The notes beneath the pieces are model-generated. The model was given only the letters and a program-made list of their open reading frames with translations. It did not search any database and was not told where the DNA came from. Below, one piece after another: positions 17,759 to 59,342 of a stretch of DNA of 64,000 bases. Made by a program: the position numbers and the translations under genes. The stretch comes from Burkholderiaceae bacterium 26 (lineage in GTDB: Bacteria > Pseudomonadota > Gammaproteobacteria > Burkholderiales > Burkholderiaceae). The stretch is taken from positions 728,590-792,589 of the forward strand of contig JYOB01000010.1 in the NCBI GenBank assembly GCA_000955795.1, given 5' to 3'. Positions within the stretch are counted from its first letter, which is position 1; each line of letters starts with the position of its first letter.

Positions 17759-17832
17759 GCGGGCGTCGTATAATGGTAATACCCTAGCTTCCCAAGCTAG
17801 AGCCGTGGGTTCGATTCCCATCGCCCGCTCCA
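17759..17832 (+). tRNA. tRNA-Gly, anticodon CCC
   Basis: A 74-base cloverleaf with CCA encoded. The acceptor stem GCGGGCG (17759-17765) pairs with CGCCCGC (17822-17828). The anticodon stem CTAGC/GCTAG encloses the loop TTCCCAA, giving anticodon CCC, which reads GGG. The T-arm contains GTGGGTTCGATTCCCAT. The discriminator base is U and the 3' CCA occupies 17830-17832. A promoter lies upstream and a terminator just downstream, so it may be a single-gene unit. Confidence 0.95.
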
Positions 17833-31024: not shown

Positions 31025-32983
31025 TCAGGCAGCGGCTTGGCCAGATGAAATCGAAACGACCTGCGGCGTTTGCGGTCCATAACCGTGAACGTATCCACGT
31101 AGGATTTCCTTGATCAGCCTCTCATCACTTCGCATCGCTGCATCCCTCATCTGGCACAGAACGGGCGCAAAACGCGGCCACGGCACGTAATCCTCTCGTG
31201 CCTTCATGATGCGTTCATGGAACGTTCCTTCAGGGTTGTCGCCAATCAGCAGTTCCTCGTAAAGTTTTTCGCCAGGTCGCAAGCCGGTGATCTTGATAGC
31301 GATGTCGCCATTTGGATGGCTATCGTCCCGAAGGGATAGACCTGACAACTGCACCATGCGACGTGCCAAATCCATGATCCTCACGGGTTGGCCCATATCA
31401 AGTACGAACACCTCTCCGCCCTGCGCCATGGCGCCTGCCTGCAGCACCAACTGAGCAGCCTCCGGAATCGTCATGAAATAACGGGTGACTTCCGGGTGCG
31501 TTACCGTCAAAGGACCACCCTCCAGCAACTGCCGGCGAAACAACGGCACCACGCTACCACTGCTTCCAAGTACATTGCCGAAACGCACCATGGCAAACAC
31601 AGTCTTATTAGGGACAGTCGACTGTGGTGCTCCGTTCAGCAGTCCGAAATCAATCGACTCAGCCGCCGCAAGTGCTTGTAGCACGAGTTCGGCCATGCGC
31701 TTTGTGGCGCCCATGACGTTGGTGGGCCGCACAGCTTTATCCGTTGAAACCAAGACGAAATACTCAGCAGCGCTTTCCATAGCCGCACGCGCCATGTTGA
31801 GCGTGCCAAACACGTTGTTGAGCACACCTTCCGAAGGATTGCACTCCACAAGCGGCACATGTTTGTACGCCGCTGCATGATAAACGGTCGCTGGTCGATG
31901 AGCTTGGCAGATTTCCCTCAGGCGCTCCAGATTTGCCACGCTTGCCAAGAGCGGGACAATTTCCACTGAAAGTCGATTCTCAACACACAAGCCTTCCAGC
32001 TCGCGGTGAATCGAATACAGCCCAAACTCGTTGTGCTCGACCAAAACCAGCTTCCGCGGGCGCTCCAGCACAATCTGACGGCAGAGTTCACTGCCGATAC
32101 TGCCACCGGCCCCAGTAACAAGGACGGTCTTGTGGCTCAGGTTGCGAGCAAGCAACTCCTCGTCGGGCGGCACCGGCGCGCGCCCCAAGAGGTCTTCTAC
32201 ATCCAACTCTTGGAAGTCGCGCACCGTCACCTTCCCCGACGCAAGATCGACGAGCCCAGGCAGCGTGCGCACATGGACGGGAAGTTCCCGTAGCTTGGCG
32301 ATAATAGCGTTTCGACGAGCACGTCCAAGCGATGGAGCTGCCAGCAGTATGTCCGTAACGCCCATGCGCTCAACGGCCTCTGCAACCTCATCATGCCCGA
32401 TGATGTCCAGACCGTTGATGGTACGGCCAATCTTGGCAGGATCGTCATCAATGAAACCGAGCAGCACAAACTCGCGCGTCACACTCAGGGCTGACGCCGT
32501 TTGGGCTCCCGCCTCGCCTGCCCCATAGATCATCAATCGACCCATCCCGTGATAGGACTTGCCCGATTGTCCGGCAAGCCAGAACCGAGCCATTGCCCGG
32601 CTCGTACCGACGAGCAAGAGAAACAGCATCGGTTGAATCAAGCCGACACTGCGCGGCACTCCATCCCATTTAAACAGGATAATCGCCATGAAAAACAACG
32701 CCCCGTAAAGGCCCACTGCCTTTGCCGTGGTGGCCAGAGCGGCCATGCCGGTATAGCGAAAGATGGCGCGATACAACCCAAAACGTACAAACAATGGAAA
32801 TGCCAACAACGGCGCGAGCAGGTACACATACTTTTGCTGCATCTGCGGCAAGCCTGCCTGATCAATCCGCAAGTAGAAGGCAATCCATACCGCAATCAGC
32901 GACAGCAACAGGTCTAGCACGACAACCACAAAACGCTTGGTCGGTCGCGATAGCTCGAGTAGCGGGCTCATTAGCTTGTTCAC
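31025..32983 (-). CDS. wbpM: Membrane-bound UDP-GlcNAc 4,6-dehydratase, WbpM/PglF (CapD) family
   Basis: 652 residues: four N-terminal membrane segments within about residues 18-126, a first Rossmann-like domain (LMIYGAGEAGAQTA), then the catalytic extended SDR domain with TGAGGSIGSELCRQ (290-303). The usual Ser-Tyr-Lys triad is replaced by Ser413, Met424 and Lys428 with Thr-Asp-Lys at 414-416, the pattern of WbpM and PglF. It converts UDP-GlcNAc to the 4-keto-6-deoxy sugar. I use GTG 32983, which gives a four-base GTGA overlap with the aminotransferase gene; ATG 32971 is the alternative. It is the last gene of the cluster. Confidence 0.9.
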   Translation of the reverse strand: MNKLMSPLLELSRPTKRFVVVVLDLLLSLIAVWIAFYLRIDQAGLPQMQQKYVYLLAPLLAFPLFVRFGLYRAIFRYTGMAALATTAKAVGLYGALFFMAIILFKWDGVPRSVGLIQPMLFLLLVGTSRAMARFWLAGQSGKSYHGMGRLMIYGAGEAGAQTASALSVTREFVLLGFIDDDPAKIGRTINGLDIIGHDEVAEAVERMGVTDILLAAPSLGRARRNAIIAKLRELPVHVRTLPGLVDLASGKVTVRDFQELDVEDLLGRAPVPPDEELLARNLSHKTVLVTGAGGSIGSELCRQIVLERPRKLVLVEHNEFGLYSIHRELEGLCVENRLSVEIVPLLASVANLERLREICQAHRPATVYHAAAYKHVPLVECNPSEGVLNNVFGTLNMARAAMESAAEYFVLVSTDKAVRPTNVMGATKRMAELVLQALAAAESIDFGLLNGAPQSTVPNKTVFAMVRFGNVLGSSGSVVPLFRRQLLEGGPLTVTHPEVTRYFMTIPEAAQLVLQAGAMAQGGEVFVLDMGQPVRIMDLARRMVQLSGLSLRDDSHPNGDIAIKITGLRPGEKLYEELLIGDNPEGTFHERIMKAREDYVPWPRFAPVLCQMRDAAMRSDERLIKEILRGYVHGYGPQTPQVVSISSGQAAA

Positions 32984-34155
32984 CGGGCCGCCCGCTTCAG
33001 CACATCGTCCACCACCGTGCACGTCTTGGCGATCTCTGCATCCGTCAGCGTCGGATGCACTAGGAACATCACACTGGTCTCGCCCAGCGAACGTGCGACC
33101 GACAACGGAGCATCCGGACGCCACCCTGTGTTGTCGAATGCTTTTTCCAGGTACACCTCGGAACATGAGCCCTGGTAGCAAGGAACGCCTGCCGCGTTGA
33201 TCTCTTCAATAATCCGGTCGCGCGTCCAGCCTTGAGCCAAATATTTGGGTTCGACATAGACATAGCATTTGTAATGCGCATGCACATTCCCTGCCGGGAC
33301 CTCGGGCACACGTACAACAGCATGCTGTCGACAGGTGTCCCAGATGGCCTCTGCGTGTGCCGTGCGACGAGCAGTCCAATCAGACATCCGACCCAGCTGG
33401 ATGCGCCCAATAACAGCCTGCATTTCAAGCATGCGCCAATTGGTACCGAAACTTTCATGCAGCCAGCGGAAGCCAGGCGGATGCTGGCGCTCATAAACTG
33501 CTTCATAGCTCTTGCCATGGTCCTTAAATGACCACATGGCACGCCAGAGCGCCTCATCATTGGTCGTGACCATGCCGCCCTCGCCGCCCGTGGTCATGAT
33601 TTTGTCCTGACAGAAACTCCACGCGCCAACATGACCGATTGAGCCGACGCTGCGGCCGCGATACTGTGTGCCATGCGCCTGAGCACAGTCTTCAATCACC
33701 TTGAAGCCATGCTGGTCAGCTAAGGCCATGATCGGATCCATGTCGCACGGCCACCCGGCAAGATGCACGCAGACCACTGCTTTGGTACGCGGCGTTACGA
33801 CGCGGGCAATGGTCTCGGCCGACAGGTTGCCACTATCCGCCTCGATATCCGCAAATACCGGCGTCGCTCCCGCGTTGACCACAGATGAAATGCTGGCAAT
33901 AAACGTGCGGGGCGTCACAACAACTTCATCGCCGGAACCGATGTTCAGTGCCTTCAGCGCAACGTCGAGCGCGAGCGTGCCATTGGCCAATGCAACGGCA
34001 TAGCGCGTGCCTGTCCACTGCGCGAATTCTTTCTCGAACTCACGGCACTCCGTGCCCGTCCAGTAGTTGACCTTATTGGACATAAGCACACGGTGAACAG
34101 CATCGGCTTCTTCAGTGGTGAAGGATGGCCACGGAGAAAAAGGGGTATTTAGCAT
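32980..34155 (-). CDS. DegT/DnrJ/EryC1/StrS sugar aminotransferase (PglE-like)
   Basis: 391 residues of a PLP-dependent nucleotide-sugar aminotransferase: VALANGTLALDVALKALNIGSGDEV, VIEDCAQAHG (Asp156) and the PLP lysine in FCQDKIMTTGGEGGM (Lys185). Placed between WbpM and a PglD-like acetyltransferase it should aminate the 4-keto sugar, giving UDP-4-amino-4,6-dideoxy-GlcNAc in the bacillosamine route. Start ATG 34155 (MLNTPFSPWPSFT) fits the family; the frame extends 14 codons further. Its stop overlaps the wbpM start. Confidence 0.88.
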   Translation of the reverse strand: MLNTPFSPWPSFTTEEADAVHRVLMSNKVNYWTGTECREFEKEFAQWTGTRYAVALANGTLALDVALKALNIGSGDEVVVTPRTFIASISSVVNAGATPVFADIEADSGNLSAETIARVVTPRTKAVVCVHLAGWPCDMDPIMALADQHGFKVIEDCAQAHGTQYRGRSVGSIGHVGAWSFCQDKIMTTGGEGGMVTTNDEALWRAMWSFKDHGKSYEAVYERQHPPGFRWLHESFGTNWRMLEMQAVIGRIQLGRMSDWTARRTAHAEAIWDTCRQHAVVRVPEVPAGNVHAHYKCYVYVEPKYLAQGWTRDRIIEEINAAGVPCYQGSCSEVYLEKAFDNTGWRPDAPLSVARSLGETSVMFLVHPTLTDAEIAKTCTVVDDVLKRAAR

Positions 34156-34197
34156 AAGTACGTCAACAATCGATTGTTCACATAACAGGTGCGACAC

Positions 34198-34824
34198 TCA
34201 GGCGTTCGAAATCGGCTTGGCAGGACAGCCAACAACGGTCGATCCATCCACCACAGCACTTACCACGACTGCACCCGCACCCACCAGCGCGTGCGACCCA
34301 ATGCGGGTGCCCTGACGCACTGCTGCGCCCACACCCACCCAACTGAAATCGCCGACGGTCACGTTGCCCGACAGGTGGGCTCCCGGACTGATATGTACGC
34401 CTTTCCCGAGCATGCAGTCGTGGTCAATGGTTGCTCCCGTGTTGACAATAGCCGCCTCTCCAACGACAGCGTCCGCATTGACCACTGCGTTAGCCATGAC
34501 AACAGAGCCTGGACCAAGACGTGCACATGGGCTGACATAGGCACGCGGGTGCACTACCGTGGCGATGATTCCATCGGCCTCTTGCAGACTGCGCTGTTTT
34601 TGCCAACGAACCTCGCAATTCCCGATGGACACCATCACGCCATCGAACTCATGAACGCGAGCAAGCAACGCTGCCGTATCGCCGACAACGGGCCAATGGC
34701 CGTTTTGTTCAACGTTGGGCCACGCGTCATCAAAAAACTCGACTTCCTGCCAACCCGCCGCGATTGCAGCATCGGCAACAACTTTGCCATGGCCACTGGC
34801 ACCAAGTAGTGCGAGTCGCTTCAT
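34198..34824 (-). CDS. PglD/NeuD-type sugar N-acetyltransferase (left-handed beta-helix)
   Basis: 208 residues. The N-terminal Rossmann-like part (KRLALLGASGHGKVVADAA) binds the nucleotide sugar. The C-terminal hexapeptide-repeat helix (from about residue 90: VHPRAYVSPCARLGPGSVVM onward) binds acetyl-CoA. His135 in NTGATIDHDCMLG matches the catalytic His of PglD. It should N-acetylate the 4-amino sugar to UDP-N,N'-diacetylbacillosamine. It shares a four-base ATGA overlap with the sugar-phosphate transferase gene upstream. Confidence 0.88.
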   Translation of the reverse strand: MKRLALLGASGHGKVVADAAIAAGWQEVEFFDDAWPNVEQNGHWPVVGDTAALLARVHEFDGVMVSIGNCEVRWQKQRSLQEADGIIATVVHPRAYVSPCARLGPGSVVMANAVVNADAVVGEAAIVNTGATIDHDCMLGKGVHISPGAHLSGNVTVGDFSWVGVGAAVRQGTRIGSHALVGAGAVVVSAVVDGSTVVGCPAKPISNA

Positions 34825-35414
34825 GGCTTGTTTCCCGTGAACTTCGACATGGTAGCCTCTCCGTCAGCACTGATGCCTTCGCGCACAAGTACCTTTCGCA
34901 CGGTCAGCCACAGGATCTTGATGTCAAGCCACAGCGAGTTGTTGTCGACATACCAGACATCCAACCGAAATTTGTCTTCCCAGCTCAGCGCATTACGGCC
35001 GTTGACCTGAGCCCAACCCGTCACACCTGGACGAACTTCATGGCGCCTAGCCTGCTCAGCAGAGTACAGCGGCAGGTATTCCATGAGCAGAGGTCTTGGT
35101 CCTACAAGGCTCATATCACCGCGGACCACGTTCCATAGTTCGGGCAATTCATCCAGGCTCGTCGAACGCAGGAATCCACCAAACGGTGTCAACCGCTCCG
35201 CATCAGGGAGCAATTGACCATCGGCCCCACGTGCGTCCGTCATGGTGCGGAATTTCACCATCTCGAAAGGCTCGCCGTGCAGACCTGGCCGACGCTGGCG
35301 GAAAAACACCGGGCTGCCCAGCTTGCGGCGAATGGCCCAGACCAACAGCAGAAATGGAATCGACAGGGTCACCAGTGCAAGAGTGGCGAGCAGGAAATCA
35401 AAAATGCGTTTCAT
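34821..35414 (-). CDS. PglC-type monotopic phosphoglycosyl transferase (initiating sugar transferase)
   Basis: 197 residues, close to the minimal catalytic PglC size. A single N-terminal re-entrant hydrophobic helix (FDFLLATLALVTLSIPFLLLVWA) is followed by FRQRRPGLHGEPFEMVKFRTM, the catalytic Asp-Glu in TSLDELPELWNVVRGDMSLVGPRPL and the GVTGWAQVNGRN motif. It transfers a sugar phosphate, here most likely diacetylbacillosamine phosphate, to undecaprenyl phosphate. It thereby starts the repeat unit. It has none of the extra membrane helices of WbaP/WcaJ. Confidence 0.9.
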   Translation of the reverse strand: MKRIFDFLLATLALVTLSIPFLLLVWAIRRKLGSPVFFRQRRPGLHGEPFEMVKFRTMTDARGADGQLLPDAERLTPFGGFLRSTSLDELPELWNVVRGDMSLVGPRPLLMEYLPLYSAEQARRHEVRPGVTGWAQVNGRNALSWEDKFRLDVWYVDNNSLWLDIKILWLTVRKVLVREGISADGEATMSKFTGNKP

Positions 35415-35475: not shown

Positions 35476-36738
35476 TCATTCCGCTCTTGTACTTTCGTGA
35501 GATTTAAAGGCCGCGCTCCCATCGGGAGCGACAGACTCCAGGGTTTGCAGCCAGAGGTCAGCGAGTCTCGCACGATCAAAATCGCGCTCGGCCAGACCGC
35601 GCGCCCGCCGCCCCATTGCCTTCAACGTATCCCGATTATCGGCCGCCCGTTCCAGTGCATCCGCAAAAGCGCTCGCGTCGTCTGGCGGCACGGCCAAACC
35701 GCAATCCTCCGCGGCAATCATCTCAGCCAGCCAGCCAGGATAGTTATTGAGGACCGGCAGCCCTGCAGCGATGTAATCGAAGAACTTGTTTGGTGACGTG
35801 CCAAAATAAAACGCTGGAACATTGGCAAGCACCTGCAGTCCGATATCAGTCGATGCCATCAAACCAGCCAACTTGCTCTTGTTTACCGGCGCATGGAAGA
35901 CGACGTTATCGAGCCGCTCACGTCGAGCGCGCGCTTCGAGCTTCGGCTTGAGCTTACCTTGCCCGATCAGGACGATCTTGATATCGGCGCGACCTCGCTG
36001 TTTAAGCTCCGCGGCCGCGTCAAGCACGGCACCAAGACCATTGGCCATGCCATGCGTGCCCGCAAAAACCGCCATCAAATCAGTGGGCAACACACCGTGC
36101 GGACGCCAAGGCTCAACAGGAGAATCGAAAATGGCTAAGTCGCAACCATTCGGAACCATGGTGATCCGTTCCTTTGGTACACCACGGTGCCGAATTCCCT
36201 CGACGATGCCTGGCGACAGGCCAATTAGGCGGTGCGCAGAACGATAGCTTGCCCACTCAAGCACGCCCATAGCCCAGAGAACCACCGGGTTTCGAATCAC
36301 GCCCATTGCACGGGGCAACTCGGGCCACAGGTCGCGCACCTCGAATACAAACGGTTTGCTGCGCAGCCAGCGTGCAAAGATCCCCGGCAGCCCTGCCGTA
36401 AGTGGTGTTGTCGTGGCGAATATGACGTCATACGGTTCCGTCAGCGCGAAGCCGATGCTACGCAGCGCGAATTTCAGAAACGTCGCCGTACGCTTGATGA
36501 AACCATCACTATTCGAATAGGCGAGGTCGAGTTCAATAACCTCGATGCCTTCGACCATGCCTCGCCGCATGCCACGCTGGAATGGCGCGTCCAGTCCAGT
36601 GTGTCCTCCGGCGAAACTGCCGCACACCATGGTGACCGAATGGCCCGCCTCGACAAGATGCCGGGCCATCGCGTAGGAGCGAATGCCACCTGTGCCTCGC
36701 GGGGTTACAAAGTGCTGATGAAAATACAGGACCTTCAT
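35476..36738 (-). CDS. GT4-fold glycosyltransferase, WbuB-like
   Basis: 420 residues starting MKVLYFHQHFVTPRGTGGIRSYAMARHLVEAGHSVTMVCG, a two-domain GT-B enzyme. The acceptor domain includes FEVRDLWPELPRAMG, and the donor domain SPNKFFDYIAAGLPVLNNYPGW. The resemblance is to WbuB-type transferases, so a 6-deoxy-amino-sugar donor is possible, though not proven. ATG 36738 is the conserved start; ATG 36747 or GTG 36744 would overlap the heparinase-family gene. It directly follows that gene in the cluster. Confidence 0.85.
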   Translation of the reverse strand: MKVLYFHQHFVTPRGTGGIRSYAMARHLVEAGHSVTMVCGSFAGGHTGLDAPFQRGMRRGMVEGIEVIELDLAYSNSDGFIKRTATFLKFALRSIGFALTEPYDVIFATTTPLTAGLPGIFARWLRSKPFVFEVRDLWPELPRAMGVIRNPVVLWAMGVLEWASYRSAHRLIGLSPGIVEGIRHRGVPKERITMVPNGCDLAIFDSPVEPWRPHGVLPTDLMAVFAGTHGMANGLGAVLDAAAELKQRGRADIKIVLIGQGKLKPKLEARARRERLDNVVFHAPVNKSKLAGLMASTDIGLQVLANVPAFYFGTSPNKFFDYIAAGLPVLNNYPGWLAEMIAAEDCGLAVPPDDASAFADALERAADNRDTLKAMGRRARGLAERDFDRARLADLWLQTLESVAPDGSAAFKSHESTRAE

Positions 36739-36740
36739 GT

Positions 36741-38588
36741 TCACCATTCGTATTGGGAAATCAATGTACCGCCATGAGCCACTTCGAGTTCCAACACCGG
36801 TATCGCGGTTTTCTCGAGGTAGTACAAAGACTCCCACCCTTCCACAATCTCACACCGCGTGACCGGCACATCGGCAGACACACGTAGTCGCTGTCCATTG
36901 CCCATGCAAACTACGAATTCCGAACCGTGCTCATTCGACTCAAACGTCCAGTGGCCAGGAGCGAGCCGCCATCGCAACACCGCGCGTTCAACAAAGCCAC
37001 CCACGCGATCGCGTACCTCAAGGTAATTCGTATGCAATTGCATGGAGCGATGGTGGGACGCCCCTTGATCATCGGAATACGCTGCCGCCATTGTTACAGG
37101 ATCGGAGCCCGACAGCCGCTCCACAGCTTCGGCCCTAAGCCAGTTTCCGAACAGGAAACGTGACAGGCGCGGCATCTGATCACGGCCGTCAAATTGCACC
37201 GTGTTGTGGCCTTGCGTGCCGCCGAAGTAGCTCAGCCAACGTGACTCGGTGTTGTAGCTGAACGTGCCGGCATCACGCAGGCACGGTTGCCCCGCGATCC
37301 ACAGATCCACATGCAAGGCATCGGCTTGGTTTGGACGGAAGCGGAACCGCGGATAGCGCAACAATGCCATAGCCGACCCATTGCGCATAACCGCAAAGCC
37401 ACCATCATCGGCTTGCAACATGCCCGGCGCCGGTGCAGGCTCAGCAGCCTCGGGCACATCGAGCCACTTGAGCATCGCGCATGCCGACTCGGATGATGGG
37501 TATGCCATTTGTCGCCCAAACAACGCCATCGCGAGATGCACGCTAGGGCGGTAATCTCGGTACGGGGCATCCGTGAGCGGCAACAGCCGAGCACCATCAT
37601 TCGCGCCGACGTTGGGTACATCGCCGCTAGAGGATTGCGTCATCACGTGGAGCCAATGCGTCGCCACCAGCGCCCTCTCGTGCCACTCTGCGGAGAGTGG
37701 TGGTACCCCGCTGAGCCGTTGCCAGACCTCCACCCAACTGAACGTATCAAGCATCAAGCGGTGATAATTGACCGAATACTGACTGAACGTACCCTGCTTG
37801 CCAATCAATCGCGCAGCTCGATTCTCGAGCCACTTACGCCCCGTTTTCGCCCAAGCGGAACCGTTCGAATCGCCAAACATCGCCAACCATGTCCCGCCGA
37901 TGAATAAGGCAGCCGCTTCCGAGGTTCCATGGTTGTTGTCTTGCGCCATCGCGTATTGCACCGTGGGCGCAATGCGTTCCAGGTGCAATGCGATCAGTGC
38001 GCGTAACGCCGGCAACGCCTCACGAACCTGCCCGAGAATCGCTGCCGCGCAAGACAGATGCATGACGCGGATGGACGCCTCTTGTCCGCACTTCCAGTTT
38101 GGGCCCACATAAGGCGCATTTTGGCGAATCCAATCGGCCAACCATGCGTTGAGACGCGCGAGCTCCGTAGCGTCCCCTTGCCGGGCGCGTTGTGCGAACG
38201 CAAGCACCCAGTCTAGGCGCGACGCCTCCCAGATGCCTTTGATATCGCCAACCTTGGAGTCAAAATCCGGAATCTGCCACCAAGGCCGCGAGGGATTGGG
38301 GACCCGCACGCCTGTCAACGGGTTGGTGAACCAATCCGGCGGAGCGTCGCTAACCTGCACAGGCCAGCGACCAAACCAGCTTGCCTCATGGCGCCAACCG
38401 GAAACAGCGGGGGCATCAACAGCGGGCAGGTTCGTACTCGCAAAGAACGCTCCAGTCGGCACGTCAGCATGCAATCTACGTACTTTGTTGATACCCAGGC
38501 GCACGCCCGCGCGATAGCCCACCGCCCTAGCAATGTTGGGGAGTCCCAATGCCAAGGCGACCTTGATTGTGGACCAATGGCGCTTCAT
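36741..38588 (-). CDS. Heparinase II/III-family (alginate-lyase fold) protein inside the O-antigen cluster
   Basis: 615 residues: an N-terminal (alpha/alpha) toroid (about 110-330) and a C-terminal beta-sandwich (about 370-600). Residues matching the lyase catalytic set are visible: Asn219-His220 in AQDNNHGTSEAA and Tyr275 in YSVNYHRLMLD. The C-terminal domain shows FRPNQADALHVDLW and GTFSYN. Classical members cleave uronate-containing polymers by beta-elimination and are exported. I find no signal peptide here (start MKRHWSTIKVALALGLPNIA), which suggests cytoplasmic action on a precursor. Start ATG 38588 lies seven bases after the oxidoreductase stop. Confidence 0.85.
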   Translation of the reverse strand: MKRHWSTIKVALALGLPNIARAVGYRAGVRLGINKVRRLHADVPTGAFFASTNLPAVDAPAVSGWRHEASWFGRWPVQVSDAPPDWFTNPLTGVRVPNPSRPWWQIPDFDSKVGDIKGIWEASRLDWVLAFAQRARQGDATELARLNAWLADWIRQNAPYVGPNWKCGQEASIRVMHLSCAAAILGQVREALPALRALIALHLERIAPTVQYAMAQDNNHGTSEAAALFIGGTWLAMFGDSNGSAWAKTGRKWLENRAARLIGKQGTFSQYSVNYHRLMLDTFSWVEVWQRLSGVPPLSAEWHERALVATHWLHVMTQSSSGDVPNVGANDGARLLPLTDAPYRDYRPSVHLAMALFGRQMAYPSSESACAMLKWLDVPEAAEPAPAPGMLQADDGGFAVMRNGSAMALLRYPRFRFRPNQADALHVDLWIAGQPCLRDAGTFSYNTESRWLSYFGGTQGHNTVQFDGRDQMPRLSRFLFGNWLRAEAVERLSGSDPVTMAAAYSDDQGASHHRSMQLHTNYLEVRDRVGGFVERAVLRWRLAPGHWTFESNEHGSEFVVCMGNGQRLRVSADVPVTRCEIVEGWESLYYLEKTAIPVLELEVAHGGTLISQYEW

Positions 38589-38595
38589 CTTCGAT

Positions 38596-40743
38596 TTATC
38601 CCTGACTGCGCAGCAGTTCAGCGACTTCGATGGTGACTCGTGCAACCTCAAAGATCTCGTCTGCTGGAATTGCCGGCGCACCACTCTCGACGCCGGCCAA
38701 GAAAGCCGCCGCGCAGGCACTCTGCCCCTTGTCCTGGCGCCAGAGATTCATCTTGCGGAAGCCCGGCCACCCGTAGCCGGTCAACTTGCGGAAGTTGTCC
38801 AACTGCAGCACGCGACCCGCGGCAAATACCTCGACGCGCTCCTTCGGAAAGCTGGCAGCCCCATTCGCCAGATACAAGATCGTCCCAAAGGAACCATCCG
38901 CAAAGCCCAGGGTGATCGACGCCTTGTCCTCTGTTACGGTCAAGCCTGGCGTATCGCCCATGCGTCGTCCCTGCACCGAAACAATCGAGCTGCCCGCGAG
39001 GAAGCGCATGAGATCGATGAAATGGCAGGCCTCACCGATAATCCGTCCGCCACCCACCGCATTGTCCTGCGTCCAGTGATTCGGCGGAATCGCACCTGCA
39101 TTCATCGTCATGATGAATGATTTAGGTTCCTTAACCGCCGCGAGCAGCGCCTTCATCTTCTGCACCTGCGGCGAGAAGCGACGGTTAAAGCCGACCATGA
39201 TCTGCGGACCACCGGCAGGCTTACGGTTCTGCGCCTCGTCAAACACGCGTCGTACCTCGTCTAACCCAGCGTGGTCGATGGCGAGCGGCTTCTCTACGAA
39301 GACGTGCTTGCCTGCAGTCAACGCCTGTGCCACAAAACGAGCATGCGTGTCGTGGCGTGTAACGATGGCCACCGTATTGATCGCCTCGTTGGCCAGCATG
39401 CCTGAGAGATCCGTCGACGCCTGAGCAAAGCCCGCCTTCTTGCCGTGGATCACACCGTTGATACCACCGGCGGTGACAACACTGTGGAACTGGGCCCCCG
39501 CCGCCTTGAACGCGGGAATCAGCATGCGCGAGGCATAGTTGCCGGCACCTATGAATCCGAGCACGGGCCGCTGAGCATTGTAGGAAGGTGTCTGCGATGT
39601 CAGGGCAACTGTCTGCTGCGTACGGGTCTCGGGATCGGATCCGTACTGGAGAACAATGCCCAGGGCGGATTTATCGGTCGTCAGCAGATCGTACGCCTGC
39701 GTCGCGCTCTCAAAAGCAAAACGATGCGTGACAAGCGCTTTCACGTCGAGCTGGCCGCTGGCCAGCATATCCAGGACAGCCTCAAAGTTGCGCTGCTCCG
39801 TCCAGCGCACGAAGCCCAGGGGATAATCGTTACCCTTCTCTTCGTAGCCCGAATCGTAGCGCCCCGGACCGTACGAGCAGGACACCTGGAAGCTCAGTTC
39901 TTTCTCGTAGAAATCGGCGCGGTTGAGTTCGAGCCCCGTGACACCCACCAGCACGATGCGTCCGCGTTTGCGGCACATATGCGCGGCCTGGCTGACAGGA
40001 TCGCTCGATTTTGTTGAAGCTGTAATGAGCACCGCATCGACACCACGTCCATGAGAGAACGCCATGGCCGCAGCCACTGGGTCCTCCCCGGCGCCTGGGT
40101 TGCACGTTGCGGCACCGAAAGCCCGTGCCAGGGCCAACTTGCTCTCATCAAAGTCGATACCCATAACACGGCAGCCATGGGCACGCAGAAGCTGCACCGT
40201 AGCCAAGCCGATCAAGCCGAGTCCGGTCACAACAATCGATTCGCCCAACGTCGGCCGAATCAGGCGGATACCCTGAAGGCCAATGGATGCGAGCACAGTG
40301 AACGCCGCAGCCTCACTGTCGACCCCATCCGGGATCTTGGCACACAAATTTTTGCCAACGCGCACGATATCTGCGTGCGGGCCGTTCGACGCGACACGAT
40401 CGCCCACGGCAAAACCTGTAACGCCTGCGCCGACTTCAAGCACTACACCCACGTTACAGTAGCCAAGCGGCAACGGCTGATCGAGCTTGCTGCGCACTGC
40501 CTCGACCGTCGTCATTAGCCCGTCTGTCTTGACCTTGTCGAGAACCATCTTGACCTTCTCGGGCTGCTGGCGCGCCTTTTCAATGAATGAGGCCCGACCG
40601 AAATCCACCAACATCCGCTCTGTTCCGGCAGAAATCAGACTGTGCGTCGTTCGGATCAGCAGCGTACCTGCGCTCGCCCGCGGCGCTGGCGCTTCCACCA
40701 GCGAGGTTTCACCGGTGCCCATGTTCTGGAGAATCTGTTTCAT
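38596..40743 (-). CDS. Bi-domain oxidoreductase: zinc-type alcohol dehydrogenase fused to Gfo/Idh/MocA dehydrogenase
   Basis: 715 residues. The first half (1 to about 375) is a medium-chain dehydrogenase with a nucleotide fold at TGLGLIGLATVQLLRAHG. The second half (from about 388) is a Gfo/Idh/MocA enzyme with GFIGAGNYASRML, HVFVEKPLAID and the family catalytic region GEACHFIDLMRFL. The pair of redox domains suggests oxidation and reduction of the same sugar, for example an epimerisation through a keto form. Such fusions recur in polysaccharide loci beside heparinase-family genes. Reaction unknown. It lies 23 bases after asnB and seven before the heparinase-family gene. Confidence 0.85.
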   Translation of the reverse strand: MKQILQNMGTGETSLVEAPAPRASAGTLLIRTTHSLISAGTERMLVDFGRASFIEKARQQPEKVKMVLDKVKTDGLMTTVEAVRSKLDQPLPLGYCNVGVVLEVGAGVTGFAVGDRVASNGPHADIVRVGKNLCAKIPDGVDSEAAAFTVLASIGLQGIRLIRPTLGESIVVTGLGLIGLATVQLLRAHGCRVMGIDFDESKLALARAFGAATCNPGAGEDPVAAAMAFSHGRGVDAVLITASTKSSDPVSQAAHMCRKRGRIVLVGVTGLELNRADFYEKELSFQVSCSYGPGRYDSGYEEKGNDYPLGFVRWTEQRNFEAVLDMLASGQLDVKALVTHRFAFESATQAYDLLTTDKSALGIVLQYGSDPETRTQQTVALTSQTPSYNAQRPVLGFIGAGNYASRMLIPAFKAAGAQFHSVVTAGGINGVIHGKKAGFAQASTDLSGMLANEAINTVAIVTRHDTHARFVAQALTAGKHVFVEKPLAIDHAGLDEVRRVFDEAQNRKPAGGPQIMVGFNRRFSPQVQKMKALLAAVKEPKSFIMTMNAGAIPPNHWTQDNAVGGGRIIGEACHFIDLMRFLAGSSIVSVQGRRMGDTPGLTVTEDKASITLGFADGSFGTILYLANGAASFPKERVEVFAAGRVLQLDNFRKLTGYGWPGFRKMNLWRQDKGQSACAAAFLAGVESGAPAIPADEIFEVARVTIEVAELLRSQG

Positions 40744-40766
40744 TGGTTCGATCTAACGACGTTCAG

Positions 40767-42683
40767 TTATACGGGGTAGCGGCCATCAAGGTACTGCCGG
40801 CACCAGAGTTCCATGCAGACCAGCGCGAAAATCGAATACGTGCCGTCAATTCGCTGTTGCTGATCGGCTCGACGCAGCGCGTCCACTGCTGCCACATCGA
40901 AGATGCCGCGACGACGAATCGACTCCGGCGAAAGCAGATCGTCAACCAAGGGCTTGAGTCGTGTCTGCAGCCAGGAACGCAGCGGCACACCGAAGCCTGT
41001 TTTGGGACGATAAATCACGTCACGAGGCAGCATCCGCTCCATTGCGCGCTTGAAAATCCATTTTCCTTCGCGGCCACGCTGCTTGTAGTCGACCGGCAAC
41101 CGCGCAGCAAGCTCAACCAGTTCTAGGTCCAGCAACGGCACTCGCACCTCCACCCCGGCAGCCATCCCCATCTTGTCGGTGTAGTTCAGGTTATGGTCGG
41201 CCAGGAAGTGCTTGCATTCCAGGTACAGCATCTTGTTCAGATCGGCTGTCTGCTGTGGCACCTGCTCAAGCGATGTAAGCAGCGGTTGCGCCAGCGACGC
41301 CGGCGTCAGCGTTGCAGCGAAATCGCGATTCAACAAACCGAAGGCGCGCTCCGGTGCAAGCCACATGAAATAGCTGGCCAGACGCTCCGCAGGATCCTTG
41401 TCAGCGTACTGGAGCGCCTTGCTGACACGCCGCAGCAACGGCGAGGAGACCGGCAAAGCCCTGCTAGTCGCTGCGAGCAGGCTTCGCGCCGGACGCGGCA
41501 ACCATGACCAATAATGCTCCTGCTGCAATGCAAAATGTCGACGATAGCCCGTGAAGATATCGTCTCCGCCAGACCCCGAAAGCAAGACGGTAATCCCATG
41601 CTGGCGGGCAAGCTCGGAGATAAATAGCGCGTTAAGTGCCGCCGGATCTGCGGTTGGCTCGTCGAGGAAATACACCATCTGCGCGAGCCGATCGACCATC
41701 TCTGGCCCGACTTCCACGGTGTGCAGATCAACGTTGAGATGCTTGGCGACACGCTGAGCGTAGGGCAGATCGGCGGCAAATCCCTCGTCAGCAACAGAAC
41801 CATCATTCACGGCAATGGTAAAGCACTGGATATGGGTGTCTGGCAATGCTTTGCGGGCGCTTGCGACAACCGCACTAGAGTCCAACCCTCCGGACAGAAA
41901 TGCACCCACGGGCACATCTGATAGCAGTTGACGTCGCACGGCTTGCTGAACTTTCTCTGCGACGAGATCTGCAGCCTCGTCCTCAGATACATTAAGGATC
42001 GGCTTATCGTATGGCAGATCGTAGTATCGCCACTGGCGAACAATGCGTCCGTCCTTGACGATCATCGCGTGCCCGGGCTCGACCTTGCGCACCGAACGTA
42101 CAAGCGTACGTTCCCGAGGCGACCAGAGGTACCCCAGGTGACTGAGCACAGCCTGCGGGTCCAGTGCCTTATCGGCTAGCCCGGCGCGCAGCAGCACCTT
42201 CATCTCGCTCGCAAAGGCAAAGCGACCGTTGTCAGCCGTGTAGTACAGCGGTTTAACGCCGAGCTGGTCCCGTGCGACGAACAAATACTCCTTCCGCTTA
42301 TCCCAGATGGCGAGTGCGAAAATGCCATTGAGACGATTCAGCATCGCCTCTCCGTACTTCTCGTAAAGATACAGAATCACTTCGGTATCCGAGTGACCAC
42401 GGAACACCACGCCGTCAGCCTTCAGCTCGGCTGCAAGCTCGGGGGTGTTGTAGATCTCGCCGTTGTAGACGATGACAGTCGCATCGCTGCGCGTAGCCAT
42501 TGGCTGGTGCCCAGCCTCCGAAAGATCTTGAATTGCAAGGCGGCGATGTGCAAGACCGACACGATTTGCCTCGAACACCACCTGCCCTTCGTCATCCGGC
42601 CCACGATGCCCCAGTACGCTGGCAAGCGCACGCAGATTCATCGCTGCAGGCTCGTAGCCGGAGTAGCCGACAATTCCACACAT
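40767..42683 (-). CDS. asnB: AsnB-type glutamine-dependent amidotransferase
   Basis: 638 residues starting MCGIVGYSG. Cys2 is the glutaminase nucleophile after Met removal, and the GATase II domain reaches about residue 215. The synthetase domain has the ATP pyrophosphatase loop FLSGGLDSSAVVAS and later LLSGSGGDDIFTGY and NLNYTDKMGMAAGVEVRVPLLD. It could make asparagine. In an O-antigen cluster with WecB-WecC, though, amidation of a uronic acid (as proposed for WbpS-type proteins) is more likely. No signal or membrane segment is seen. Confidence 0.88.
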   Translation of the reverse strand: MCGIVGYSGYEPAAMNLRALASVLGHRGPDDEGQVVFEANRVGLAHRRLAIQDLSEAGHQPMATRSDATVIVYNGEIYNTPELAAELKADGVVFRGHSDTEVILYLYEKYGEAMLNRLNGIFALAIWDKRKEYLFVARDQLGVKPLYYTADNGRFAFASEMKVLLRAGLADKALDPQAVLSHLGYLWSPRERTLVRSVRKVEPGHAMIVKDGRIVRQWRYYDLPYDKPILNVSEDEAADLVAEKVQQAVRRQLLSDVPVGAFLSGGLDSSAVVASARKALPDTHIQCFTIAVNDGSVADEGFAADLPYAQRVAKHLNVDLHTVEVGPEMVDRLAQMVYFLDEPTADPAALNALFISELARQHGITVLLSGSGGDDIFTGYRRHFALQQEHYWSWLPRPARSLLAATSRALPVSSPLLRRVSKALQYADKDPAERLASYFMWLAPERAFGLLNRDFAATLTPASLAQPLLTSLEQVPQQTADLNKMLYLECKHFLADHNLNYTDKMGMAAGVEVRVPLLDLELVELAARLPVDYKQRGREGKWIFKRAMERMLPRDVIYRPKTGFGVPLRSWLQTRLKPLVDDLLSPESIRRRGIFDVAAVDALRRADQQQRIDGTYSIFALVCMELWCRQYLDGRYPV

Positions 42684-42725: not shown

Positions 42726-44012
42726 TCAGGAAGCCGTACGCGTGACAAGCAAACGCGTCCCGGACAGCTTGATCGTGAGCCAGAATGGAAGATAGATAGT
42801 TAGGAAAAGCACCGTGACAGATGCCGCCTCGCCACGGAAATAGTGCAGCAGAAGACTCACAAATAGCGCATGCCGACCAAGCGTCAAATCGCAGTCCGGC
42901 CGACTACGGACAGCACGATAGGACAGACCATACAGAAAACCGGCTGCCAGCCCTCCCGCAATTAATCCAAACCATCCAAAATTCATGTACATCTCACCGA
43001 AGAAACCCGGTGGAAGCGTGGTGCCCTCATTCAGCCAAGCCGCAGGCCAGAATGCCATGGTAAAAACGCCAGGAGCAGTCAATGGCTTTGCCGGATAAAT
43101 TGCCGAAGGTATCCAGATAAGAAAGATCATCAGCAAGGTCCGGCCGTACTCGAACTGCATCTGATTCGGCATGGCGTCCATCAGCACAGCCATCGTCTGA
43201 AGTTGCATCATGTTTCCTGTGAATTGAAGAAACAGGAATTTCATGAATGCTGACAACACCGTATCGCCATATGCTGTAAAGGCAAAATGCCCAAGCACAA
43301 GATATTCTTGCTTGATAACGTGGTAGATCATCAGCAGCACAAACAGAAGCACACCAAAAATCAAGAGCTTCCAGGCCGAGAATGAACGGACTCGATAGTG
43401 CCAGACCATCGCGAGCGCGAGGATGTAAACAAAGATTGTCGCCTTGGCACCCTGCAAAGCGATGATTGCGATGGAGACCAAAACATAGAGCGCGAAAAAC
43501 AGAACCGAAGTACGCGAAACCTGGTTTTGTCGATTGGTCAGCATGAGCGCCCATGCCAAACCAACGCTTAAGTATGCGTTCTGAAGCAAGACAATGAAAT
43601 TCATGCCGGCCGACGCTCGAGTCCGGTCACTTGCAGCGACTAACGCCTCCTCAAACCCGCCTTGCAGATGAATGGTTAACAGCAAGCCACTGGTAGCAAT
43701 AGCGCCGAGGAGGTAGAACGACAGCGGAAGACGCCTACTCTTGAAGCCTAGGCACCTTAGTATCCTGGTACGGGCGAGCGATTTTTGATTACTCCCCACG
43801 ATCCCCATATAAGCGATTGCAAAACAAAGCATCACAAGACCGTATCCAAACACGGCTTGCAACGTGGCGCTAAACCGATCTGAGAATGCAAACTGCCAGA
43901 ATTGAGTGAATCCGTCCTCTTGATTGAGAAACGGATAAACCGGTAACAACACACCCCCGACAAAAAATGCTGTCATCAAGGACAATGGCGAAAATGGATC
44001 AGTGCGACGCAT
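42726..44012 (-). CDS. wzy: O-antigen polymerase, Wzy
   Basis: 428 residues with about ten to twelve hydrophobic segments and a larger periplasmic loop in the second half (YGRTLLMIFLIWIPSAIYPAKPLT through PGFFGEMYMNFGWFG), the usual look of Wzy. It joins lipid-linked repeat units on the periplasmic side. ATG 44012 (MRRTDPFSP) overlaps wzx by 14 bases, and the frame is open 21 codons further. The stretch is A+T-rich compared with the backbone: 43201-43260 has 23 G+C of 60. Assignment rests on topology and position, since Wzy proteins share little sequence. Confidence 0.8.
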   Translation of the reverse strand: MRRTDPFSPLSLMTAFFVGGVLLPVYPFLNQEDGFTQFWQFAFSDRFSATLQAVFGYGLVMLCFAIAYMGIVGSNQKSLARTRILRCLGFKSRRLPLSFYLLGAIATSGLLLTIHLQGGFEEALVAASDRTRASAGMNFIVLLQNAYLSVGLAWALMLTNRQNQVSRTSVLFFALYVLVSIAIIALQGAKATIFVYILALAMVWHYRVRSFSAWKLLIFGVLLFVLLMIYHVIKQEYLVLGHFAFTAYGDTVLSAFMKFLFLQFTGNMMQLQTMAVLMDAMPNQMQFEYGRTLLMIFLIWIPSAIYPAKPLTAPGVFTMAFWPAAWLNEGTTLPPGFFGEMYMNFGWFGLIAGGLAAGFLYGLSYRAVRSRPDCDLTLGRHALFVSLLLHYFRGEAASVTVLFLTIYLPFWLTIKLSGTRLLVTRTAS

Positions 44013-45285
44013 TGTCTCCCCCGAGCGGCCGATGATAGCCAAGCGATGACCAAAGCCCCGACACTTTGAACGCACCTAAATGCAGCATCAACGAGACGAC
44101 AGACCCCGCAACAAATAGAGTAATCACACCATCCACTGCGAAATACCGTGCGAGAGGATACGCACATGCCCCAGTAATAATGACTTCCACAATATTGATG
44201 CATACAGAGACGCGATATTTACCCAGCGCTGTGATTGCAGTGCCCATGGAAAGCGTAATAGCGCGCAATGGCAGAGCGAAACTCATGAGGAACAGCGCAT
44301 TCATCGTCGGGGTATACGCCAACCTGAGCCATTGTCGGTTAATAAACCATGCAACAACCACCAGGAAGAAAAACAGCATCGCCATGGAAAGCATGTTTCG
44401 CATGAGCCTGCCAAATCGCTCACGAACCAGTGCAGGTGCGTGCAATTGAGCGACGAGGCGCGGCAGCTCCACCTGCATCGTCACCGCCAGAATCAGGTTA
44501 GGGGCCATTAAAACCAGCGACGCCAGACCAAAGAAACCAATCTGATCTGTTGGGATCTTGGCTGCTGCCAGTGCCAGGATCGGCAAGTTGTCGCAAAGCA
44601 GGCGCACGAACAGGGCCAAATTAGCCGTGATACCTAGCGAAATAACGCTCCAGTTAGGCAACATGTGGCGGTTAAAGCCACCACTCCCACGGAGATAGTG
44701 ACGCACGCCGAGCAACATGCCGATCAGGACTGCACTCTCACCAATGTAACGACCGACAACCCAGCCCTCCACACCGAATAACCACGACATTAAGCAAACG
44801 ATGCCGACTGCGAAAAAAGTCAGTGTTACTACACGAATGGAGAACGTAGAGGCAGTCTGGGTACCCTGTAAGAATGCGGCAATGACGCGGATGGTGTTGC
44901 TGAGCAGCGCTACGCCCGCAATCATTGAAGCATGCGTAACCATCGCTCCAGACAGAACACTGCGCATCAACAAGAGCACGATCACTACAAGGCTGCCCAC
45001 CAGTAATTCCATGCAGATGAGCCGCTTGAGCAACTGAGCTCGCTCGATATCACCCTGCAAGGCCGCAATCTCGCGAATCGCCAAAGTTGGTGCGCCAACA
45101 GAGGTGCCCAGCACAACGATCGATAAAATGCTCTCGATGGTACGAATGACACCCAACTGATTTGGTGTCAGAAAAAATGCTGAAAGGAACTGTGAAATGA
45201 GAACACCGCCTTGGATACAGGCGGTCAGAATCAAGACGCCGATCGCCGTCCGATATCGCTGAAGAAAGAGGACTATCTGTGCCAC
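43999..45285 (-). CDS. wzx: O-antigen flippase, Wzx (MOP/polysaccharide transport family)
   Basis: 428 residues with about twelve membrane helices, beginning TAIGVLILTACIQGGVLISQFLSAFFLTPNQLGVIRTIESI, typical of the polysaccharide transporter branch of the MOP superfamily. It moves undecaprenyl-linked repeat units across the inner membrane. Low G+C content and position next to wzy and a glycosyltransferase fit an exchangeable serotype-specific block. Its end overlaps the predicted wzy start. Confidence 0.87.
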   Translation of the reverse strand: MAQIVLFLQRYRTAIGVLILTACIQGGVLISQFLSAFFLTPNQLGVIRTIESILSIVVLGTSVGAPTLAIREIAALQGDIERAQLLKRLICMELLVGSLVVIVLLLMRSVLSGAMVTHASMIAGVALLSNTIRVIAAFLQGTQTASTFSIRVVTLTFFAVGIVCLMSWLFGVEGWVVGRYIGESAVLIGMLLGVRHYLRGSGGFNRHMLPNWSVISLGITANLALFVRLLCDNLPILALAAAKIPTDQIGFFGLASLVLMAPNLILAVTMQVELPRLVAQLHAPALVRERFGRLMRNMLSMAMLFFFLVVVAWFINRQWLRLAYTPTMNALFLMSFALPLRAITLSMGTAITALGKYRVSVCINIVEVIITGACAYPLARYFAVDGVITLFVAGSVVSLMLHLGAFKVSGLWSSLGYHRPLGGDNASH

Positions 45286-46343: not shown

Positions 46344-46405
46344 GGGTATCGATTCGTACAGGGCGGTCACGATGCGGACGCCCGGCGTCCAGCTTTGCTA
46401 AGGGT

Positions 46406-47302: not shown

Positions 47303-47304
47303 AA

Positions 47305-49576
<2,272 letters not shown>

Positions 49577-49577
<1 letters not shown>

Positions 49578-50698: not shown

Positions 50699-50904
50699 AG
50701 TTCGCGTATCAACTGCGTCTCCGCTTGTACCAGCCGGCAAACAGAAAAGAAGACCGGCCGAAGTCGCCGGGCGCGGGCCCGACACAATGACCTGCCTCGT
50801 GAATATGTTTTTTTGTTAAGAAAAACCCTGCATTCTAAGCTAAACCGACCTGCGGCCGCCCCGCACCGTGTACAAGCGTCGTTCGCGACACCGAGAGCCG
50901 GGGC

Positions 50905-58179: not shown

Positions 58180-58305
58180 CGTTTCAATATTTTTGAGATT
58201 GATGCAAAACGAAGCGAAGCGGTTCTGGCGGTTCGGCGCCGACGCAGACAGTACAAAAAGTACGGCAAGTCGACGCCGGGCCGGCAGAATCGTTTTTCAT
58301 CGATC

Positions 58306-59277: not shown

Positions 59278-59342
59278 GAGAAACGAAGGGCGACGAGGTC
59301 AGTACAGGTCAGTTCAAAGCGGGTGCGGCGCGGCGCGCGAAC

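What the first reader, a model, noticed from the sequence alone, without database searches (positions are those of the whole stretch)
35476..42683. Four-gene block (GT4, signal-less heparinase-family protein, dehydrogenase fusion, AsnB-type amidotransferase) inside an O-antigen cluster
The genes are packed with gaps of 2-42 bases and transcribed together. The heparinase II/III-family protein keeps the lyase residues Asn219, His220 and Tyr275 but has no signal peptide, so it would act in the cytoplasm, not on exported polymer. Next to it are a two-domain redox enzyme suited to oxidise and reduce the same sugar, and an amidotransferase. My inference is a glycan-modifying pathway acting on a uronic acid (possibly the ManNAcA made by wecB-wecC): redox or epimerisation, elimination-type chemistry and amidation on a nucleotide- or lipid-linked sugar. 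I know of similar gene neighbourhoods in exopolysaccharide loci but of no established reaction scheme.
Basis: partly seen in the sequence, partly recalled or inferred. Interest (0 to 1): 0.72.

Follow-up and report, generated by a model that had tools for sequence, protein, structure and literature searches.

The report
O-antigen genes for L-galactosaminuronic acid
Two neighbouring genes in a bacterial surface-sugar cluster, one of them labelled "heparinase", probably build a rare mirror-image acid sugar inside the cell instead of cutting polymers, and the idea can be tested in a test tube.

Summary
Across 47 related loci the conserved part is MDR+Gfo fusion ("bidom") – heparinase-fold protein ("hep") – GT4 – PglC/D/E(/F), usually with wecB/wecC; AsnB-like genes appear in 6 of 47. 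Hep has a confident PL12-like model (pLDDT 93.5), with Asn219, His220 and Tyr275 invariant in 46 sequences and no convincing signal peptide.

Literature ties related pairs to one sugar. Pseudomonas aeruginosa PA14 has zbdP–hepP in its O-antigen cluster, and its O-antigen contains alpha-L-GalNAcA-(1-3)-QuiNAc. Vibrio vulnificus YJ016 needs VV0357/VV0358 for capsule, and its LPS polysaccharide contains alpha-L-GalNAmA-(1-3)-QuiNAc. Acinetobacter WeeE/WeeF (gnlAB) were postulated to make UDP-L-GalNAcA.

Best reading: D-ManNAcA is inverted at C5 by hep and at C3 with bidom, giving L-GalNAcA, which AsnB amidates; hep without bidom would give L-GulNAcA. The pathway link is well supported; the reaction steps, and whether the substrate is nucleotide- or lipid-linked, are inferred. 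HepP's clearing of heparin and the mild zbdP mutant stand against it.

The parts
40767..42683 (-). AsnB-type amidotransferase (638 aa, Cys2 present); optional decorating enzyme, proposed to turn the uronic acid into its amide
   Evidence: Pfam GATase_7 and Asn_synthase; TIGR01536 460.7 bits over cut-off 267.1, TIGR03108 490.8 under cut-off 816.9; AsnB-like hit in 6 of 47 hep loci and 22 of 53 bidom stretches
38596..40743 (-). bidom: MDR (zinc-type ADH fold, GHE zinc motif lost) fused to Gfo/Idh/MocA oxidoreductase (715 aa); relative of ZbdP of P. aeruginosa PA14
   Evidence: (36 homologues, 54-81% identical), AF2 pLDDT 87.3; 3 of 4 zbdP primer translations exact in the family
36741..38588 (-). 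hep: heparinase II/III-fold protein (615 aa), N219/H220/Y275 invariant; proposed C5-epimerase
   Evidence: pLDDT 93.5; best Foldseek matches PL12 heparinase III
35476..36738 (-). GT4 glycosyltransferase (GT4b), found beside or within a few kb of hep in all 47 loci; proposed to add the new uronic acid to diNAcBac-PP-lipid
   Evidence: start taken at the internal ATG
34821..35414 (-). PglC-like initiating sugar-phosphate transferase
   Evidence: PF02397 218.6 bits; in 45 of 48 loci, window included
34198..34824 (-). PglD-like acetyltransferase
   Evidence: PglD_N and Hexapep
32980..34197 (-). PglE-like DegT aminotransferase
   Evidence: PF01041 311 bits; 42 of 48 loci
31025..33181 (-). PglF/WbpM-like dehydratase (true start inside the ORF)
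   Evidence: PF02719 395.9 bits
48336..49577 (-). wecC, UDP-ManNAc 6-dehydrogenase
   Evidence: NF008286 694.5 bits over cut-off 459
49577..50701 (-). wecB, UDP-GlcNAc 2-epimerase
   Evidence: TIGR00236 525.6 bits over cut-off 210
42726..44075 (-). Wzy-like polymerase
   Evidence: TIGR04370 37.6 bits, just under cut-off 40
43999..45285 (-). Wzx-like membrane protein (inferred from position and hydrophobicity)
   Evidence: no Pfam or NCBIfam hit
45312..46370 (-). second GT4 glycosyltransferase
46406..48339 (-). rmd-like and gmd genes (GDP-D-rhamnose-type sugar)
   Evidence: TIGR01472 474.5 bits for gmd; rmd assigned by position

Best explanation
The bidom-hep pair converts the WecB/WecC product UDP-D-ManNAcA (or the same sugar on a lipid carrier) into L-GalNAcA, which differs from it only at C3 and C5. 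Hep, on a heparinase scaffold, removes H5 next to the carboxylate with His220/Tyr275 (Asn219 neutralising the carboxylate) and re-protonates the other face: an epimerase, not a lyase. Bidom oxidises and re-reduces a ring carbon so that C3 is inverted. GT4b then joins the sugar to diNAcBac-PP-undecaprenol made by PglF/E/D/C, and AsnB turns the carboxylate into an amide; in other loci WbuX-HisH-HisF turn the N-acetyl into an acetamidino group instead. Shown here: gene set, conservation, co-occurrence, predicted fold, invariant residues. Shown by others: the L-GalNAcA/L-GalNAmA structures and the need for such a pair for capsule in V. vulnificus. Inferred: every reaction, their order, and whether the carrier is UDP or lipid.
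For: (1) Conserved set in 47 loci of several phyla. (2) In a 397-genome draw, own genome excluded, bidom is in 6 of 8 hep genomes vs 14 of 388, WecC in 7 of 8 vs 59 of 388; in all 7 genomes with both, window included, they are adjacent. (3) Of 53 bidom loci drawn without regard to hep, 37 carry a hep-family gene (HMM E <= 1e-3) in the fetched stretch, all 37 on bidom's strand; 27 of 31 where bidom scores 1000 bits or more. (4) Of 14 hep genomes with no WecC match, 12 are MAGs by title; the two isolates (L023, L039), like L022 and L042, carry a divergent 2-epimerase. The L022 copy scores 312-315 bits with WbpI-type uronic-acid 2-epimerase structures, level with 4neq (317, labelled UDP-GlcNAc 2-epimerase), against 162 for E. 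coli WecB; L023 also has TviB over cut-off. A D-manno uronic acid is a plausible intermediate there too. (5) PA14: both genes in the O-antigen region PA14R38 of 12 genes (PMC1794565 passage); O-antigen -4)-a-L-GalNAcA-(1-3)-a-D-QuiNAc-(1-3)-a-L-Rha (PMC2997053); of ten published primers, 3 of 4 zbdP ones translate exactly into bidom and 1 of 6 hepP ones exactly, 3 more at 5 of 6 residues, into type B hep. (6) YJ016: deleting VV0357 or VV0358 abolishes capsule (PMC6037467 passages); its LPS polysaccharide has a-L-GalNAmA-(1-3)-a-D-QuiNAc (PMC3210612 passages). (7) WeeE/WeeF = gnlAB postulated for UDP-L-GalNAcA. (8) C3+C5 inversion of D-ManNAc3NAcA to L-GalNAc3NAcA is the scheme proposed for Bordetella, there with three SDRs (PMC2279256 passages).
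Against: rHepP cleared heparin in a plate assay (28 ug, 1 h, buffer as negative control), read by its authors as heparinase activity (PMC5732420 section 18). The PA14 zbdP transposon mutant has a mild phenotype, unlike hepP, although a 2006 screen found both attenuated. 16 of 53 bidom loci show no hep-family gene in the fetched stretch (some on short contigs). Of 9 hep loci with no bidom in the held stretch, 8 lack it genome-wide, so the pair is not obligatory. 15 of 47 hep genomes have no WecC over cut-off (one is a contig-truncated gene). HepP belongs to a second, remote subfamily (type B; profile match 99.7%). The YJ016 structure is from LPS while the mutants were scored for capsule. WeeE, WeeF, VV0357 and VV0358 sequences were not read, so those identities rest on annotation and gene order.
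Confidence: 0.6

Rival explanations
1. Oxidise-epimerise-reduce at C4: bidom makes the 4-keto sugar, hep inverts C3 and C5 of that ketone, bidom reduces C4 again; the product is still L-GalNAcA.
For: Same logic as proposed for WbmF/G/H in Bordetella (PMC2279256 passages); bidom holds two oxidoreductase domains.
Against: Of 9 hep loci without bidom in the held stretch, 8 lack it genome-wide: isolates L023, L028, L030, L039 and MAGs L018, L037, L040, L046; so hep should have a reaction that needs no ketone.
Confidence: 0.2
2. The product is L-GulNAcA or a 2,3-diamino L-uronic acid (C5 inversion only), and bidom does something else, for example at another carbon or in preparing decoration.
For: L-GulNAcA from D-ManNAcA by C5 inversion is expected in Vibrio VPS by its authors (PMC3901696 passages); divergent epimerases in four loci, one of which scores level with WbpI-type structures.
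Against: The two organisms with both a related gene pair and a solved structure have L-galacto sugars; bidom is strongly tied to hep.
Confidence: 0.18
3. Hep is a true lyase kept in the cell or exported by an unusual route, clearing misassembled polymer.
For: PL12-like fold, N/H/Y residues kept, heparin-plate clearing by rHepP, the proposal of the YJ016 authors.
Against: No convincing signal peptide (PSORTb found none in HepP); the YJ016 deletion abolishes capsule, which a clean-up lyase need not do; linkage to bidom and WecC; the His that type B and PL12 enzymes carry in the sheet domain is not matched in type A by the profile alignments.
Confidence: 0.1
4. The four genes as a block are a dedicated uronic-acid amidation pathway built around AsnB.
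For: Tight packing in the window; AsnB-like genes (28% identity or more) in 22 of 53 bidom stretches, 7 of them at 40-60%.
Against: AsnB-like genes in only 6 of 47 hep loci; WbuX-HisH-HisF clusters in 14-17 loci instead (family names from L003).
Confidence: 0.05

Closest known systems
zbdP-hepP (PA14_23420/PA14_23430), P. aeruginosa PA14 O-antigen cluster
   Same: Adjacent two-part dehydrogenase and heparinase-family protein without detected signal peptide, in an O-antigen cluster; primer translations match the bidom and type B hep families
   Different: HepP is the shorter type B (1653-bp gene); published as a heparinase and virulence factor; whether an AsnB gene is nearby was not checked
VV0357/VV0358, V. 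vulnificus YJ016 capsule region
   Same: Zinc-binding dehydrogenase annotation and a heparinase III-like protein, both needed for capsule
   Different: Sequences not read here; the residue carries an acetamidino group (L-GalNAmA), and the structure is of the LPS polysaccharide
weeE-weeF (emulsan, Acinetobacter venetianus RAG-1) = gnlA-gnlB
   Same: Postulated for UDP-L-GalNAcA; gnlB also occurs without gnlA; recalled gene order weeE-weeF-GT-initiating transferase-acetyltransferase-aminotransferase-dehydratase fits this module
   Different: Sequences not available here, so identity with bidom/hep is unproven; no chemistry assigned in the passages read
Bordetella WbmF/WbmG/WbmH (UDP-L-GalNAc3NAcA)
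   Same: Proposed C3 and C5 inversion of a D-manno uronic acid
   Different: Three SDR proteins; not a heparinase fold or an MDR-Gfo fusion
PL12 heparinase III / HepC and the wider heparinase-fold lyases
   Same: Fold, Asn-His and Tyr positions
   Different: Secreted enzymes on polymers (recalled); here apparently in the cytoplasm with precursor-making genes
Dermatan sulfate epimerase (recalled)
   Same: Believed to share this fold while epimerising C5 of a uronic acid
   Different: Acts on a polymer; not among the 50 listed structure hits, relation not tested

Membership tests
PL12 heparinase III (lyase) | alpha/alpha toroid plus beta-sheet fold | tested here: met
   AF2 pLDDT 93.5; Foldseek E 1.4e-22 to 5jmd, TM 0.56 by query length
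PL12 heparinase III (lyase) | Asn-His pair and Tyr at the catalytic positions | tested here: met
   N219, H220, Y275 invariant in 46 sequences, aligned with PL12 N-H and YH; that these are the PL12 catalytic residues is recalled
PL12 heparinase III (lyase) | catalytic His of the sheet domain (recalled) | tested here: not met
   Profile alignments put Arg/Gln at that stretch in type A; type B keeps GHAHAD; alignment-based only
PL12 heparinase III (lyase) | export signal | tested here: not met
   Crude hydropathy test on 46 N-termini
PL12 heparinase III (lyase) | eliminative cleavage of a uronic-acid polymer | not testable with these tools
   The only assay I saw is the heparin plate result for remote HepP
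L-GalNAcA pair (zbdP-hepP / weeEF) | adjacent fusion dehydrogenase and heparinase-family gene | tested here: met
   7-base gap in the window; adjacent in all 7 drawn genomes with both
L-GalNAcA pair (zbdP-hepP / weeEF) | lies in an O-antigen or capsule locus that can make UDP-D-ManNAcA | tested here: met
   wecB, wecC, wzx/wzy-like and pgl genes in the same run
L-GalNAcA pair (zbdP-hepP / weeEF) | product is L-GalNAcA | not testable with these tools
   Needs NMR or enzyme assay
Zinc-dependent alcohol dehydrogenase | catalytic zinc ligand motif GHE | tested here: not met
   The GHE position reads G94-Y95-C96 against ADH 5vm2; G94 and Y95 invariant in 37 sequences
Gfo/Idh/MocA oxidoreductase | EKP lysine and downstream His | tested here: met
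   E484-K485-P486 and H574 invariant in 37 sequences; Pfam over cut-off
XrtA/PEP-CTERM amidotransferase TIGR03108 | score over curated cut-off | tested here: not met
   490.8 vs 816.9 bits
Glutamine-hydrolysing asparagine synthase family TIGR01536 | score over curated cut-off | tested here: met
   460.7 vs 267.1 bits
WbuB L-FucNAc transferase (E. coli O26; role recalled) | close sequence kinship with GT4b | tested here: not met
   Only 33 of 48 GT4b members hit, 19-26% identity, median 50 bits

The most novel reading that the evidence does not exclude
A heparinase-fold protein has been turned from a secreted polymer lyase into a cytoplasmic C5-epimerase of a nucleotide- or lipid-linked uronic acid, paired with an MDR-Gfo fusion that inverts C3: a second, convergent route to L-galacturonic amino sugars, widespread in bacteria and hidden under the label 'heparinase'. 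Presence or absence of bidom would predict L-GalNAcA versus L-GulNAcA from sequence.
Probability: 0.5. Interest if true: 0.75.

Novelty: new variant of a known kind. Interest (0 to 1): 0.6.

Why it matters
L-GalNAcA or its amidine form occurs in surface polysaccharides of Pseudomonas, Vibrio and Acinetobacter, and in what I could read its biosynthesis is still a postulate (WeeE/WeeF, 2001). If right, this names the enzymes, gives a genome-based predictor of L-galacto versus L-gulo uronic acids, re-reads HepP and VV0358 as sugar-precursor enzymes rather than heparinases, and adds an epimerase of activated sugars to a fold known for polymer lyases.

Tried and rejected
GT4b as a WbuB-like L-FucNAc transferase: rejected, 19-26% identity and 33 of 48 hits. 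The divergent 2-epimerase as FnlC-like (which would have put C2 inversion after L-talo): rejected, the L022 copy scores 312-317 bits with WbpI-type structures and 4neq while E. coli FnlC scores 182-199 bits, 31-34%, with the four copies. An amphipathic membrane-binding N-terminus of hep: no better than shuffles (0 of 46 with z > 2). E. coli as a source of named relatives: no match for the Pseudomonas bidom-hep DNA, a divergent epimerase or a GT4b gene (DNA-level, so weak). Plasmids: 8 records, two Sphingobium at 47-49%. rmlB and rmlD queries were cut out of frame and their hits are not used. In one search three of ten scanned ORFs were not the wanted gene (L087 wrong ORF; L088, L089 a DAHP synthase). 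In one search the hep gene listed for L090 is a short distant ORF; the nearer one was seen. The structure search of the bidom model was never accepted, so its fold neighbours come from sequence only.

Papers: ten searches; others returned nothing. In these listings and the passages read I saw no paper that assigns reactions to the pair. Passages were read in PMC2997053, PMC5732420 (also its abstract and sections 17 and 18 whole), PMC9676051, PMC3901696, PMC2279256, PMC5473259, PMC10059132, PMC3210612, PMC3406104, PMC1794565, PMC4198096, PMC12616638, PMC6037467, PMC11340318 and PMC4432689. Nakar and Gutnick 2001 and Raymond 2002 were not read. On checking, the WbpI statement was weakened (4neq scores level), and the confidence lowered from 0.62 to 0.60 for that.
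Full report
What is there. The four ORFs lie where stated, all on the minus strand: AsnB-type amidotransferase 40767-42683, a 715-aa MDR+Gfo fusion ("bidom") 38596-40743, a 615-aa heparinase II/III-family protein ("hep") 36741-38588, and a GT4 glycosyltransferase (GT4b) 35476-36738. Pfam and NCBIfam agree. They sit in one same-strand run with rml, manC, wecB, wecC, gmd, rmd-like, GT, wzx-like and wzy-like genes upstream and pglC, pglD, pglE and pglF-like genes downstream. GC is 53-60% between 30 and 56 kb against 61-67% elsewhere in the window, a common pattern for O-antigen loci (general knowledge).

The natural unit. Relatives of hep were found in 47 loci of bacteria from several phyla. Clustering the ORFs of these loci with the window's (48 in all) gave: hep and GT4b in 48, PglC-like in 45, PglE-like in 42, bidom in 39, PglD-like in 36, PglF-like in 29, and WecC and WecB clusters in 28 and 26. 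Many loci end at a contig end or at 10 kb, so these are lower bounds. AsnB-like hits were seen in 6 of 47. In 14-17 of the 47 loci, by clustering, the locus instead holds WbuX, HisH and HisF2 genes; the family names come from the L003 copies.

Co-occurrence. In a draw of 397 Pseudomonadota genomes, 9 have hep and 21 have bidom (threshold 1e-100). Leaving out the window's own genome, 6 of 8 hep genomes have bidom against 14 of 388 others (Fisher p 2e-7); WecC over its curated cut-off is in 7 of 8 against 59 of 388 (p 2e-5). The draw overlaps the loci in part (equal contig lengths), and genomes are not independent by descent. Of 53 bidom loci from two draws (neighbourhoods), 37 have a heparinase-family gene (HMM E <= 1e-3) in the fetched stretch, all 37 on bidom's strand: 27 of 31 when bidom scores at least 1000 bits, 10 of 22 below. 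Two hep subfamilies appear: type A as in the window and type B of about 550 aa. Their profiles match at 99.7% probability and share the Asn-His and Tyr positions. Of ten neighbouring ORFs scanned, seven are heparinase-family by both Pfam domains, six clearly and one (L091) barely over cut-off.

The uronic acid. Of the 47 hep genomes, 32 have WecC over cut-off and one more has a contig-truncated gene. The 14 without a match are 12 MAGs and 2 isolates by their titles. Both isolates (L023, L039), and two of the MAGs (L022, L042), carry a divergent 2-epimerase only 31-34% identical to the window's WecB. Only the L022 copy was compared with structures: it scores 312-315 bits with WbpI-type 2-epimerases of a uronic acid, level with 4neq (317 bits, labelled UDP-GlcNAc 2-epimerase), and 162 with E. 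coli WecB and 174 with CapG. L023 also has a TviB-type UDP-GlcNAc 6-dehydrogenase over cut-off. A D-manno-configured amino uronic acid is thus plausible there too, but not shown.

Hep without bidom. Nine of the 47 loci show no bidom in the held stretch. Whole-genome search found it elsewhere in one (L036) and no full-length copy in eight: isolates L023, L028, L030, L039 and MAGs L018, L037, L040, L046. L018, L028 and L030 have wecB and wecC at the locus. This argues that hep has a reaction of its own and bidom adds a second one.

Fold and residues. The hep model is confident (pLDDT 93.5) and its best structural matches are PL12 heparinase III enzymes. N219, H220 and Y275 are invariant in 46 sequences. 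By profile alignment the sheet-domain His seen in PL12 and type B is not matched in type A. The N-terminus is basic, with a weak hydrophobic stretch, and does not look like a signal peptide. In bidom the GHE zinc motif is lost while the Gfo Lys485 and His574 are invariant.

Link to known structures. PA14_23420 and PA14_23430 are listed in the PA14 O-antigen region of 12 genes (PMC1794565 Table 3 passage); in the later study that named them zbdP and hepP the terms "O-antigen" and "LPS" do not occur ("lipopolysaccharide" was not searched). Of ten primers printed there, three of four for zbdP translate exactly into the bidom family (RVLAID, KRGRIV, SEDKAS) and one of six for hepP exactly into type B hep (LSPMYH), three more at 5 of 6 residues; the other three gave nothing clear. 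The PA14 O-antigen is -4)-alpha-L-GalNAcA-(1-3)-alpha-D-QuiNAc-(1-3)-alpha-L-Rha (PMC2997053), so L-GalNAcA is its only uronic acid. In V. vulnificus YJ016, deleting VV0357 (zinc-binding dehydrogenase) or VV0358 (heparinase III-like) abolishes capsule (PMC6037467); a polysaccharide from the LPS of YJ016 contains alpha-L-GalNAmA-(1-3)-alpha-D-QuiNAc (PMC3210612). WeeE/WeeF of Acinetobacter RAG-1, renamed gnlAB, were postulated for UDP-L-GalNAcA, and gnlB also occurs without gnlA (PMC9676051). I did not read the WeeE/F or VV0357/8 sequences.

Mechanism. D-Man and L-Gal configurations differ only at C3 and C5; for Bordetella the same double inversion of D-ManNAc3NAcA with three SDR proteins has been proposed (PMC2279256). 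The simplest scheme gives C5 to hep and C3 to bidom; a C4-keto scheme with hep doing both inversions is the main rival. The carrier is open: gene order next to GT4b and PglC fits both a UDP-sugar and a lipid-linked sugar.

Against. rHepP cleared heparin in a plate assay; the PA14 zbdP mutant is mild though both genes were attenuated in an earlier screen; 16 of 53 bidom loci show no hep gene; 15 of 47 hep genomes lack WecC over cut-off; type A and type B are remote from each other; GT4b is not WbuB-like.

Verdict. The module looks like an AsnB-bearing variant of a gene pair already postulated to make UDP-L-GalNAcA; the heparinase-fold epimerase reading did not appear in my ten paper searches, and it is directly testable.

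Noticed in passing
P. aeruginosa PA14_23430 (hepP), literature: Published as a heparinase virulence factor, but the gene lies in the O-antigen cluster and the terms O-antigen and LPS do not occur in that paper; its biofilm and worm-killing phenotypes may be O-antigen phenotypes.
   Followed up: partly
L003:5337-7833, L008, L016, L047 and others: WbuX-HisH-HisF2 acetamidino genes beside or near bidom-hep in 14-17 of 47 loci; predicts L-GalNAmA, as in V. vulnificus YJ016.
   Followed up: partly
L022:8898-9986, L023:11842-12987, L039:8568-9704, L042:1183-2292: Divergent 2-epimerases in place of WecB near hep; NCBIfam calls all four wecB although the L022 copy scores far better with WbpI-type structures and 4neq than with E. 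coli WecB.
   Followed up: partly
L084, L088, L089, L092-L094: Bidom relatives without any heparinase-family gene in the fetched stretch, two of them near wecB and a class II DAHP synthase gene: perhaps another product.
   Followed up: no
Vibrio cholerae VPS, literature (PMC3901696, PMC4432689): GulNAcA is present but the passages read assign no dedicated C5-epimerase; whether a heparinase-fold protein does it there was not tested.
   Followed up: no
window 31000-60100: O-antigen locus of lower GC beside what look by eye like pyrB/pyrC-type genes (56902-60098; no family scan made); rmlB, rmlC and rmlD are present but I saw no rmlA among the large ORFs listed.
   Followed up: no
window 17759-17832: A single tRNA-Gly (CCC) gene, the only tRNA found in the window.
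   Followed up: no
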